64,000 nucleotides of DNA. Source: Gigantopelta aegis (lineage: Eukaryota > Mollusca > Gastropoda > Neomphalida > Peltospiridae). Positions 7,120 through 63,433 of the stretch are shown here, piece by piece. The notes beneath the pieces are model-generated. The model ran no database searches and was not told where the DNA came from. It saw only the letters and a program-made list of their open reading frames with translations. The stretch lies in NCBI RefSeq assembly GCF_016097555.1, contig NC_054702.1, positions 88,456,602-88,520,601 on the forward strand. The letters run 5' to 3'. Both the position numbers and the translations under genes were made by a program. Position 1 is the stretch's first letter, and each line of letters starts with the position of its first letter.

Positions 7120-7347
7120 TCACGAAACGTTCATGACCTCAGGGACGGTTTGGGGAGGGGGAGACCGGGGCGGGTCGACATGTATGGGCGCGTGAGGCAC
7201 GAGGTCGCTGCTGGGTATAAGCCGCCAAGGCACGGTCTTGTTGCGAAAGTTGGACCGTAGATACGTCTCCAGCTGCGACTTCTCGTCCTCCAGACGGTGC
7301 AGCTTCGTCATCAACTCCTTCTGCTGGTCCTCCAGTATCGCCAGCGT
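7120..7347 (-). CDS. BATF-like zipper exon and stop
   Basis: The acceptor ATCTCCGTTTCAG is followed by 75 codons and TGA. The zipper TLAILEDQQKELMTKLHRLE continues to LETYLRSNF, and the C-terminal tail is proline-rich. Local GC content is well above the surroundings, as expected for coding sequence. Confidence 0.88.
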   Translation of the reverse strand, partial: TLAILEDQQKELMTKLHRLEDEKSQLETYLRSNFRNKTVPWRLIPSSDLVPHAPIHVDPPRSPPPQTVPEVMNVS

Positions 7348-62000: not shown

Positions 62001-63433
62001 AAAATTTCTTAATTAAATAATAAGTAGGATTAATTTACTGATTGTTGATTGGAGTATAACCTTCTTCACAAATACGAAGCCAAACCGGTTGAGAAACAAA
62101 GTAATTTATAATATACAAGTGAAATGCTTCTTTAACATTAAAATTAAAATTCTTATCTTATAAATATATTATTGTATTATTTATTTTTGATTTTATTGTT
62201 TCTAATGAAATAATATTACTAATATTATTATATTTATCAACAATAAACATTACATGAAGTTAAAATTTTATTGAAAAATCTCGATCAGTTATAAAATTGG
62301 AGAATTTGTTATTGTTATAATTTGTTTTACAAGTAACGATCTTTAAATTGATTTTTTCCTCTAGCTTTTGTCTCGTTTTGAAACACAAACGAAAGGCACG
62401 CGAACTTGAAAAATCGATCAATAAATACAAACCCATCCATTGGGGCCACCGTAATTGGAGGGATAATTAACTTGAGATATTTGGCCGTATCCACCGGCAC
62501 AGGCCGGATAGTTATAATAATCGTTCATAGTCCACACTGTTTATCCCATCACAGCACATATGAACTAAAAATCACATCTATGTATTACTAACTCAACTAT
62601 CGCTTGCGGCTCAACTGTCAATCTTATATAGCGCGGGACACCATCATTTCGAGCACCAACCAAGCGTGTGTAGCGGTCCCGGGCATTAGCTAAAACGGCC
62701 ATGGTTATCTGTGGCCAATCAAATAGCTTGAAAGTACGAGCTTGATTCACAGTTTGTGAGAAAATTGAAAAATTGTAACCGAAAAGGATGTAATAGGCGT
62801 TTACTTACTATATATGGTAAACATAATTTACAAGTCACGGGTTAAACGTCTGGTGTTAATTTCACAAGGGCTAAAATTTGCGTATAATAAACGAGAACAT
62901 ATGACAAAACAGTACAATAAACGTTAGGTTTTATGAAGCATTATACTGATACTTATTACAAGTAAAATATTTATGCATTATATATTTTTATGTTCGAACT
63001 TACCTTCATACGCGCGCAAGGCATAAAACATGATGTTATATGCGGTGGAAATGGTGGTTGTTCAACGAAAAGCATTATAAATAAAATACTCTTATATTTT
63101 GACCCGAGCTCAGAAGCGGCAATAAAATCCAGAGAGAGTGAAAATAATTCAATGTCAAGTTCGCGAACTTGCGGCGGGTTTTATCCCCACTAACATTTAC
63201 CAAGTACAAACGAAATCGGGTTAGCCAGTTCAAAGCACGCTGCATATTTTCTATTTTGAAACTGAAAACTACGCCAAATATAGCTGCCATGTTTACCGCA
63301 CACAAATAACAAACATGAATGTAATACGTACGCTCGTGGTTGCCGGTTCGCCGTTCGCCATAGACGACAAAATGTCGGCTACGTATTTAGACTCAGCATT
63401 GTAGACATTCTCGTTTTCCTGGCTTGTATACAT
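58633..63433 (-). CDS. Fos: Fos-family bZIP transcription factor (AP-1 subunit)
   Basis: Nuclear AP-1 subunit expected to dimerise with Jun and bind TGASTCA sites. Coding exons on the minus strand are 1A 63332-63433 or 1B 62433-62528, then 61495-61830, 59688-59798 and 58633-59085. Every junction is phase 0 with GT/AG. The product is 331 aa from exon 1B or 333 aa from 1A. In the 1B form the basic region ([14 protein letters not shown]) spans about residues 159-172. Zipper leucines follow at 179, 186, 193, 200 and 207, then His214 and Cys218, the Fos/ATF3 register. VKSEP near 236 matches the family's sumoylation motif, and the last residues GSPTLISL resemble the vertebrate c-Fos end SSPTLLAL. 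The intron between basic region and zipper precedes ETDKLEAE, as before ETDQLEDE in human FOS. The assignment is firm from sequence alone. Exon 2 is rich in Ser, Thr and Asp; I see no other domain. Confidence 0.95.
59523..59680 (-). mobile_element. 5'-truncated SINE in Fos intron 3 touching the exon 3 donor
   Basis: Starts at the core word GTGCATATAAAAGATCCCTT, immediately after the first 7 intron bases (GTAAGTA), and ends with the type 1 tail AAACAAACTTTAAC. A TACT at both ends could be a short target duplication. Confidence 0.88.
59688..59798 (-). CDS. Fos: Fos coding exon 3 (DNA-binding basic region)
   Basis: It has 37 codons from [18 protein letters not shown] to NKLVD and carries the N-x-x-A-A-x-x-C-R signature. 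The acceptor TTATTTCAG is the innermost of four tandem 34-bp copies (59796-59931). The GTAAGT donor at 59687-59682 is followed after one more base by a SINE. Both junctions are phase 0. Confidence 0.96.
59796..59931 (-). repeat. Four 34-bp tandem copies of the Fos exon 3 acceptor
   Basis: On the minus strand each unit reads GGTTATATTGTTTGTGTTAT followed by TTCAGGAC. The units start exactly 34 bp apart (59796, 59830, 59864, 59898), so CAG/GAC is present four times at the end of intron 2. Confidence 0.93.
59986..60168. repeat. Three tandem copies of a 61-bp unit in Fos intron 2
   Basis: ACGTGTCTAACATTCAGTGC with AAAGGTGAGGGAGGGATAGT, nearly identical among copies. Confidence 0.92.
60169..61490. 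other. Remainder of Fos intron 2
   Basis: No exon recognised. A T homopolymer lies at 60885-60912. The rest is AT-rich. Confidence 0.5.
61495..61830 (-). CDS. Fos: Fos coding exon 2 (N-terminal regulatory region)
   Basis: The acceptor TTTAATTTCCAG precedes 112 codons starting YSLPSYLSG and ending RRAIDEK. The donor is GTGTGT at 61494, phase 0. The segment is rich in Ser, Thr, Pro and Asp, with [18 protein letters not shown] in the first third. A basic stretch, [13 protein letters not shown], stands just before the DNA-binding exon and could serve as a nuclear localisation signal. Confidence 0.9.
61831..62432. other. Fos intron 1 (downstream of exon 1B)
   Basis: AT-rich intronic DNA with no repeat family recognised. 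Confidence 0.5.
62433..62528 (-). CDS. Fos: Fos alternative first coding exon 1B
   Basis: ATG at 62528-62526 (A at -3) opens 32 codons, [16 protein letters not shown]..., a Tyr/Gly/Asn-rich start. The exon ends at TGG with donor GTTTGT at 62432, phase 0, joining exon 2 in frame. A TATATAAG box lies about 95 nt upstream at 62630-62623, which gives a short leader. The GTTTGT donor is weaker than that of exon 1A. Confidence 0.8.
62590..62725 (-). promoter_or_regulatory. Candidate Fos 1B core promoter
   Basis: TATATAAG lies on the minus strand at 62630-62623, about 95 nt before the 1B ATG. A CCAAT motif in inverted orientation lies at 62715-62719. Spacing suits a start site near 62595 and a leader of about 65 nt. 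No CArG or CRE was seen here. Confidence 0.45.
63332..63433 (-). CDS. Fos: Fos alternative first coding exon 1A
   Basis: ATG at 63433-63431 has A at -3. It opens 34 codons ([18 protein letters not shown]...) that end in frame at AGC, followed by a GTACGT donor at 63331. It is phase 0, so it joins exon 2 at 61830 in frame. The encoded start resembles no domain I know. A TATA-like TATAAAG lies 80 nt upstream at 63518-63512, and a dense set of AP-1, CArG and CRE-like motifs lies beyond that. It was found by reading the sequence; I cannot prove it is transcribed. Confidence 0.72.

What the first reader, a model, noticed from the sequence alone, without database searches (positions are those of the whole stretch)
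7120..63433. Fos, ATF3/JDP2-like and BATF-like genes form a co-oriented cluster in the same order as human FOS-JDP2-BATF
The three genes in the window are all bZIP genes on one strand, read Fos, then ATF3/JDP2-like, then BATF-like. Human 14q24.3 has FOS, JDP2, BATF in that order on one strand (established knowledge). Related pairs survive elsewhere in vertebrates: ATF3 with BATF3, and FOSL1 near BATF2. The simplest reading is that a bilaterian ancestor had this tandem AP-1 cluster, later copied by vertebrate genome duplications, while this mollusc kept the single original. Intergenic gaps of 17 and 23 kb full of mobile elements make long retention notable and hint at shared regulatory elements.
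Basis: partly seen in the sequence, partly recalled or inferred. Interest (0 to 1): 0.88.

Follow-up and report, generated by a model that had tools for sequence, protein, structure and literature searches.

The report
Old Fos-family gene cluster in molluscs
A deep-sea snail keeps three related stress-response regulator genes (Fos and two cousins) side by side on one strand, and other snails and bivalves keep at least two of them on the same stretch of DNA, so the row is old and may be kin to a similar row in vertebrates, although the third gene is not a clear match to its supposed vertebrate counterpart.

Summary
The window (Gigantopelta aegis) holds three bZIP genes and no fourth, all on the minus strand: Fos, an ATF3/JDP2-type gene (G2) and a third gene (G3). 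My spliced models match NCBI proteins. All three share a phase-0 intron exactly 21 residues after the basic-region Asn, as tandem copies would. So Fos-G3 linkage predates the gastropod-bivalve split; G2's linkage is seen only in gastropods. The reading 'Fos, JDP2, BATF' is partly supported. Fos is certain. G2 scores best against ATF3 or JDP2 by a small margin; BATF is not rejected. G3 fails three BATF hallmarks (NSAYR contacts instead of NAASR, first zipper leucine lost, His end lost), and no tree places it (BATF p=0.31, G2 p=0.50).

The parts
58633..63433 (-). Fos gene, coding span (exons 63433-63332 or 62528-62433; 61830-61495; 59798-59688; 59085-58633)
   Evidence: matches P0012 fos-related antigen 1-like; 97/97 in the Fos clade
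63332..63433 (-). Fos alternative first exon 1a ([16 protein letters not shown] type)
   Evidence: phase-0 GT donor; similar module starts many lophotrochozoan Fos proteins
62433..62528 (-). Fos alternative first exon 1b (Tyr-rich)
   Evidence: phase-0 GT donor; is the start of NCBI isoform X2, P0012
59688..59798 (-). Fos basic-region exon
   Evidence: ends 21 residues after the basic-region Asn, phase 0
29403..31736 (-). G2, ATF3/JDP2-type bZIP gene, coding span (31736-31335; 30744-30637; 29543-29403)
   Evidence: 100% identical to P0007; an AG just before the ATG suggests a further upstream exon
30637..30744 (-). G2 basic-region exon (RKEKNRLAAQKCREKK), same 21-residue phase-0 intron position
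7120..12195 (-). G3, divergent third bZIP gene, coding span (12195-11947; 9635-9534; 7347-7120)
   Evidence: 100% identical to P0001, uncharacterized protein LOC121371341
9534..9635 (-). G3 basic-region exon (RRERNKKSAQAYRARR), same 21-residue phase-0 intron position

Best explanation
This is an old head-to-tail cluster of three genes of the Fos/ATF3/BATF superfamily, made by tandem duplication of one intron-bearing gene. Fos and G3 were together before gastropods and bivalves split (shown by shared contigs). G2 was with them at least in the ancestor of Haliotis and Gigantopelta (shown), probably earlier (inferred), and the row probably predates the protostome-deuterostome split (inferred). 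Gene 1 is Fos: acidic g positions in the zipper, expected to pair with Jun on AP-1 sites (inferred from family knowledge). Gene 2 is an ATF3/JDP2-type protein: intact NAACR DNA contacts, zipper ending in His...Cys, no long C-terminal tail; most likely a competing partner for Jun that tunes or represses Fos output (inferred). Gene 3 is a fast-evolving copy with altered DNA contacts (NSAYR) and a zipper lacking its first leucine, so its binding site and partners have probably shifted (inferred). Equivalence of G2 to ATF3/JDP2 is likely but not proven; equivalence of G3 to BATF is not shown.
For: Three bZIP domains, no fourth, same strand. Identical intron position and phase in all three. Shared contigs, by identical length: Fos+G3 in Mizuhopecten (443,358 bp), Ylistrum (1,311,132) and, chromosome-sized and so weak, Solemya (104,732,328); G2+G3 in Haliotis rubra (1,837,146); Fos+G2 on chromosome-sized contigs of H. 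asinina and H. cracherodii. G3 is one clade of gastropod and bivalve sequences plus one unnamed sequence (100/98). G2 full-length profile: ATF3 58.2 bits over BATF3 51.3 and JDP2 49.5, the ATF3 alignment reaching into the N-terminus, where 12 of 2000 shuffles score as high. G2+G3 as copies of lophotrochozoan Fos: AU p 0.0465.
Against: The 65-column tree fixes neither G2 nor G3: G2+ATF3/JDP2 p 0.206, G2+BATF 0.351, G2+all Fos 0.324, G3+BATF 0.314, G3+ATF3/JDP2 0.366, G3+all Fos 0.4, G3+G2 0.503; the whole superfamily is not a clade in the best tree (p 0.425), where G3 stands with human ATF4/ATF5 (42/81), a flagged join of long branches. JDP2's N-terminus shows no match to G2. No bivalve G2 was found. 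Fos was listed in many molluscs (for example Patella, Crassostrea, Aplysia, Octopus) where the G2 and G3 searches returned nothing, so linkage there is unknown. Order and strand in other species could not be read, and no non-molluscan cluster could be examined. Fly has kay and Atf3 on different chromosomes (recalled).
Confidence: 0.55

Rival explanations
1. Full one-to-one orthology: G2 = ATF3/JDP2 and G3 = a fast-evolved BATF, so the whole three-gene row is inherited from the bilaterian ancestor and vertebrate genome duplications copied it.
For: Same order and orientation as human FOS-JDP2-BATF (human arrangement recalled). G3 full-length profile scores BATF3 first at 46.4 bits. Bivalve G3s keep Asn at the second zipper a position, as BATF and ATF3 do. 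AU does not reject G3+BATF (p 0.314). A Pecten maximus transcript is reported as highly similar to BATF (PMC4657243, passages); whether it is G2, G3 or another gene is unknown.
Against: G3 fails NAASR contacts, the first zipper leucine and the His after the zipper in 6 of 6 sequences. Domain-only profile prefers fly and human ATF3 and FOS.
Confidence: 0.33
2. Fos and an ATF3/JDP2-type gene were linked in the bilaterian ancestor, but the third gene arose separately: G3 is a lophotrochozoan or molluscan extra copy, and vertebrate BATF a vertebrate-lineage one.
For: G2 has ATF3-type contacts, end motif and a weak N-terminal match. G3 lacks the three tested BATF hallmarks. Jindrich and Degnan 2016 infer FOS-ATF3 as a pair that diverged along the bilaterian stem (PMC4736632, sections 5 and 10 read); BATF occurs 0 times in that text.
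Against: Nothing excludes G3+BATF; G2+ATF3/JDP2 is not in the best tree (p 0.206).
Confidence: 0.3
3. Independent tandem copying: a molluscan or lophotrochozoan ancestor copied Fos twice and vertebrates did so separately; the matching order is coincidence.
For: AU does not reject G2 or G3 singly with lophotrochozoan Fos (p 0.102, 0.146), nor G2 with protostome Fos (p 0.148), nor G2+G3 as sisters (p 0.503). G2 linkage is known only in gastropods.
Against: Log-likelihood cost of 13.1 and 8.3 singly, 17.4 together with p 0.0465. The lophotrochozoan Fos profile scores human ATF3 (57.3) above G2 (40.7-43.0) and G3 (12.6-32.9); fast evolution could also do this.
Confidence: 0.25
4. G3 is not a Fos-superfamily gene but a transposed ATF4/ATF5- or OASIS-type bZIP that landed beside Fos.
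For: Tyr contact as in ATF4/5 and NKxSAQ as in OASIS (references recalled); best tree joins G3 to ATF4/5 (42/81). In the domain profile ATF5 (29.8) stands above BATF (29.5), FOSL1 (28.4) and JDP2 (25.0). G3+CREB3L1 is not rejected (p 0.34).
Against: Join of two long branches, flagged by the program. dmATF3, hsATF3, FOS, BATF3, FOSB, dmKAY and FOSL2 all rank above ATF5. G3 shares the exact intron and the neighbourhood of Fos and G2.
Confidence: 0.05

Closest known systems
Human FOS-JDP2-BATF row at 14q24.3 and its relatives ATF3-BATF3 and FOSL1-BATF2 (recalled)
   Same: Three Fos-superfamily genes, Fos first, an ATF3/JDP2-type gene second, a third bZIP last, all on one strand
   Different: Third gene here has NSAYR contacts, a shortened zipper and no His after it; one-to-one orthology of second and third genes not established
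Fos/kayak
   Same: Gene 1: bZIP, zipper pattern, TLISL C-terminus shared by 12 of 12 lophotrochozoan Fos aligned (some others end differently)
   Different: Nothing notable; two alternative first exons
ATF3/JDP2 family
   Same: G2: NAACR contacts, five zipper leucines, His...Cys after the zipper, short C-terminus
   Different: AAQK in the basic region (as in BATF), no Asn at the zipper a positions printed, weak tree placement
BATF family
   Same: G3: gene position in the row, small protein, Gln in the basic region
   Different: NSAYR instead of NAASR, first leucine lost, no His after the zipper

Membership tests
Fos/kayak (gene 1) | bZIP domain groups with vertebrate FOS and fly kay | tested here: met
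Fos/kayak (gene 1) | Acidic g positions and Thr/basic residues at zipper a positions | tested here: met
   a TRIK, g EEEQ against hsFOS TKIK, EEEE
ATF3/JDP2 (gene 2) | NAACR contacts and His...Cys after the zipper | tested here: met
   contacts in 2 of 2 G2 rows printed; His in 4 of 4 rows; Cys in P0007 and P0009-P0011. P0008 ends before the bZIP.
ATF3/JDP2 (gene 2) | Groups with ATF3/JDP2 in a tree | tested here: inconclusive
   Not grouped in the best tree, not rejected (p 0.206)
BATF (gene 2) | Groups with BATF in a tree | tested here: inconclusive
   p 0.351; NAACR rather than NAASR
BATF (gene 3) | NAASR DNA contacts | tested here: not met
   NSAYR in 5 of 5 G3 rows printed; the sixth (Mizuhopecten) reads the same
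BATF (gene 3) | Leucine at the first zipper d position | tested here: not met
   Gln in 5 and Val in 1 of 6
BATF (gene 3) | His after the zipper | tested here: not met
   No His at that column in 6 of 6
BATF (gene 3) | Groups with BATF in a tree | tested here: inconclusive
   p 0.314
FOS-JDP2-BATF type cluster | Three superfamily genes adjacent, one strand, Fos first | tested here: met
FOS-JDP2-BATF type cluster | Same linkage in other lineages | tested here: inconclusive
   Pairs of the three genes share a contig in 6 of 6 other molluscs where G2 or G3 was found; all three together not shown elsewhere, nothing outside molluscs
FOS-JDP2-BATF type cluster | Same order and strand in other lineages | not testable with these tools
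   No eukaryotic genome records could be read; the genome search did not complete
Fos/ATF3/BATF superfamily | Phase-0 intron between basic region and zipper | tested here: met
   Identical position, 21 residues after Asn, in all three window genes; the position in vertebrate genes is recalled, not tested

The most novel reading that the evidence does not exclude
The last common ancestor of snails and humans already had a head-to-tail Fos - ATF3/JDP2-type - third bZIP row; molluscs kept it single-copy for over half a billion years while its third gene rewired its DNA contacts, and vertebrates multiplied it.
Probability: 0.45. Interest if true: 0.75.

Novelty: new variant of a known kind. Interest (0 to 1): 0.55.

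Why it matters
AP-1 regulators are central to stress, regeneration and immune responses. An ancestral Fos cluster would fix the origin of JDP2, ATF3 and perhaps BATF, show that adjacent activator and competitor genes have been kept together across animals, and make shared regulation testable. G3 is a molluscan bZIP group with altered DNA contacts that public records name variously as uncharacterized, c-Fos-like, ATF3-like and ATF4-like.

Tried and rejected
Tried without result: the genome search on the window's own assembly for bZIP genes, asked eight times, never answered, so I do not know whether the snail has another ATF3 or BATF gene. Fos alignment against genome contigs and viral contigs: no relative. 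Solved-structure searches listed no BATF, ATF3 or JDP2 chain. No tRNA gene by ARAGORN, no Rfam family at gathering score. Pfam says only bZIP; the PF28159 precomputed for P0007 was not among the matches of the Pfam copy searched at E up to 10, and I do not know what it is.

Considered and rejected: a hidden fourth bZIP gene; G2 or G3 as pseudogenes (open frames, clean splice sites, conserved relatives in other molluscs); the gaps as evidence of unusual retention (shorter than the genome average).

Papers: eight searches touched the family or cluster and one the host genome. I saw listings only, and only part of the matches: 0 of 0, 25 of 30, 20 of 90, 12 of 12, 12 of 1,988, 10 of 48, 10 of 14 and 8 of 13. 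No listed title or abstract start reports this cluster outside vertebrates; that is no proof that it is unpublished. Seen further: PMC4736632 abstract, sections 5 and 10 and one term search; PMC8369891 abstract and passages; PMC4657243 and PMC7895826 passages. No whole paper was read.

Mended on re-check: G2's linkage is shown only in gastropods, so confidence in the best explanation went from 0.60 to 0.55.

Full report
What is there. The window comes from the vent snail Gigantopelta aegis: proteins read from it are identical to NCBI entries for that species, all on a contig of 120,622,278 bp. It holds three bZIP genes, all on the minus strand, and no fourth. Splicing is clean: every intron in the models is GT-AG and phase 0. 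Fos runs 63433-58633, G2 31736-29403, G3 12195-7120. Gaps between coding parts are 26.9 and 17.2 kb, against a genome average of about one gene per 54 kb (1.15 Gb and 21,438 genes; PMC7895826, passages).

Same origin. In each gene the intron between basic region and zipper falls exactly 21 residues after the basic-region Asn, in phase 0. Three neighbouring genes with the same exon layout are best read as tandem copies. I recall, but could not test, that vertebrate FOS, JDP2 and BATF have an intron at about the same place.

How old. The protein database lists the longest contig for each hit; identical lengths mark shared contigs. Fos P0029 and G3 P0005: 443,358 bp (Mizuhopecten yessoensis). Fos P0040 and G3 P0003: 1,311,132 bp (Ylistrum balloti). 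G2 P0009 and G3 P0002: 1,837,146 bp (Haliotis rubra). Weaker, chromosome-sized cases: Fos P0021 and G3 P0004 (Solemya velum), Fos P0013 and G2 P0011 (H. asinina), Fos P0014 and G2 P0010 (H. cracherodii). Besides the window's own proteins, 4 of 5 G3 hits and 3 of 4 G2 hits lie on genomic contigs (P0006 and P0008 are on records of 1,321 and 2,194 bp). These cover six species, and in 6 of 6 at least two of the three genes share a contig.

Limits of that. Pairs only, no positions or strands, contigs matched by length alone. The Fos list shows 120 of 991 matches. The G2 and G3 searches had few candidates (125 and 103) and returned nothing for many molluscs whose Fos is listed, such as Patella, Crassostrea, Aplysia and Octopus, so linkage there is unknown. 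No bivalve G2 was found. The three small contigs make coincidence very unlikely, so Fos-G3 linkage predates the gastropod-bivalve split; for G2 the shown depth is Haliotis-Gigantopelta.

Who they are, by tree. A 50-row tree of 65 bZIP columns puts window Fos in a 97/97 Fos clade, G2 in its own clade (98/97) and G3 in its own clade (100/98), with no firm place for G2 or G3. AU tests on a 46-row tree, after dropping four long-branched rows: G3+BATF p 0.314, G3+G2 0.503, G2+ATF3/JDP2 0.206, G2+BATF 0.351, G2+G3+BATF 0.466, whole superfamily 0.425, superfamily without G3 0.395, G3+CREB3L1 0.34; G3+ATF4/5 is already in the best tree, at 42/81 and as a flagged long-branch join. Further tests: G2+lophotrochozoan Fos 0.102, G3+lophotrochozoan Fos 0.146, both together 0.0465, G2+protostome Fos 0.148, G2+all Fos 0.324, G3+all Fos 0.4, G3+ATF3/JDP2 0.366. 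One value of 0.0465 among 15 AU tests is weak.

By profile. The full-length G2 profile ranks ATF3 58.2, BATF3 51.3, JDP2 49.5, FOSL1 46.8, BATF 45.9 bits among five human proteins tried; domain only, JDP2 44.3, ATF3 43.0, FOSL1 42.2, BATF3 42.1. The ATF3 match extends N-terminally (VKEELRFAIQNKHL in ATF3 against VKGSLKSRIHAKRL in Haliotis G2); 12 of 2000 shuffles of the ATF3 N-terminus score as high, while JDP2's N-terminus gave no match and BATF3's was no better than shuffles. So G2 is ATF3/JDP2-type by a small margin. The full-length G3 profile ranks BATF3 46.4, ATF3 41.0, BATF 39.2, FOSL1 30.7, JDP2 27.2, but the domain alone ranks fly ATF3 39.6, human ATF3 38.6, FOS 37.5, BATF3 33.7, with ATF5 29.8 just above BATF 29.5.

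What G3 has lost. DNA contacts read N-S-A-Y-R in all six G3 sequences, against N-A-A-C/S-R in every Fos, ATF3, JDP2, BATF, BATF3 and G2 row printed. The first zipper leucine is Gln (5) or Val (1), and the His that follows the zipper is gone. The two gastropod G3s lack, and the three bivalve and one unnamed G3s keep, the Asn at the second a position. Since bivalves and gastropods share the changed contacts, a changed binding site is more likely than decay.

How it most likely works (inferred). Fos has acidic g positions and should pair with Jun. G2, with intact contacts and no long tail, should compete for the same sites, as JDP2 and ATF3 do. G3 should bind altered half-sites or act through its zipper. 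Upstream of Fos exon 1a lie two of the window's ten TGA[GC]TCA sites (63560, 63612), a CRE-like site (63706) and one of five CArG boxes (63686), within 280 bp, fitting an immediate-early, self-regulated gene; I did not test this against chance, and no such group was looked for at G2 or G3.

Its order and strand are right. The BATF identity of G3 fails three features and is undecided by tree. The bilaterian claim rests on the match with a vertebrate arrangement that I recall rather than tested, plus molluscan depth. Eight literature searches on the family or cluster (listings only, partly capped) showed no report of the cluster outside vertebrates. Jindrich and Degnan infer FOS and ATF3 as a pair that diverged along the bilaterian stem (sections read); their text does not mention synteny. 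A scallop transcript similar to BATF is reported in PMC4657243 (passages), its relation to G2 or G3 unknown.

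Noticed in passing
63433-63332 and 62528-62433 (minus): Fos has two alternative phase-0 first exons. Both kinds of start ([16 protein letters not shown] type and Tyr-rich type) occur in Fos proteins of other gastropods and bivalves, so the two promoters look old. A possible third first exon lies at 63783-63652 (read by eye).
   Followed up: partly
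59796-59925: A perfect 34-bp tandem repeat (3.8 copies) multiplies the pyrimidine tract and AG acceptor just before Fos exon 3.
   Followed up: no
whole window; copies at 31990-31746, 59680-59532, 9840-9683: 33 merged copies of one dispersed short repeat. Copies lie about 10 bp from G2 exon 1, 8 bp from the Fos exon 3 donor and 48 bp from G3 exon 2: 3 of 11 exons within 60 bp, random mean 0.71, P 0.026, tested after seeing it.
   Followed up: partly
41639-42609 (minus): Tc1/mariner-type transposase remnant between G2 and Fos, its two domains (PF01498, PF13358) in different frames.
   Followed up: no
31736-31740: An AG two bases before the G2 start codon suggests an upstream, probably non-coding, exon not located here.
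   Followed up: no
9149-9364, 13111-13600, 33590-34074, 37760-38080: Long simple-sequence (CT/CA) tracts, source of many spurious open frames.
   Followed up: no
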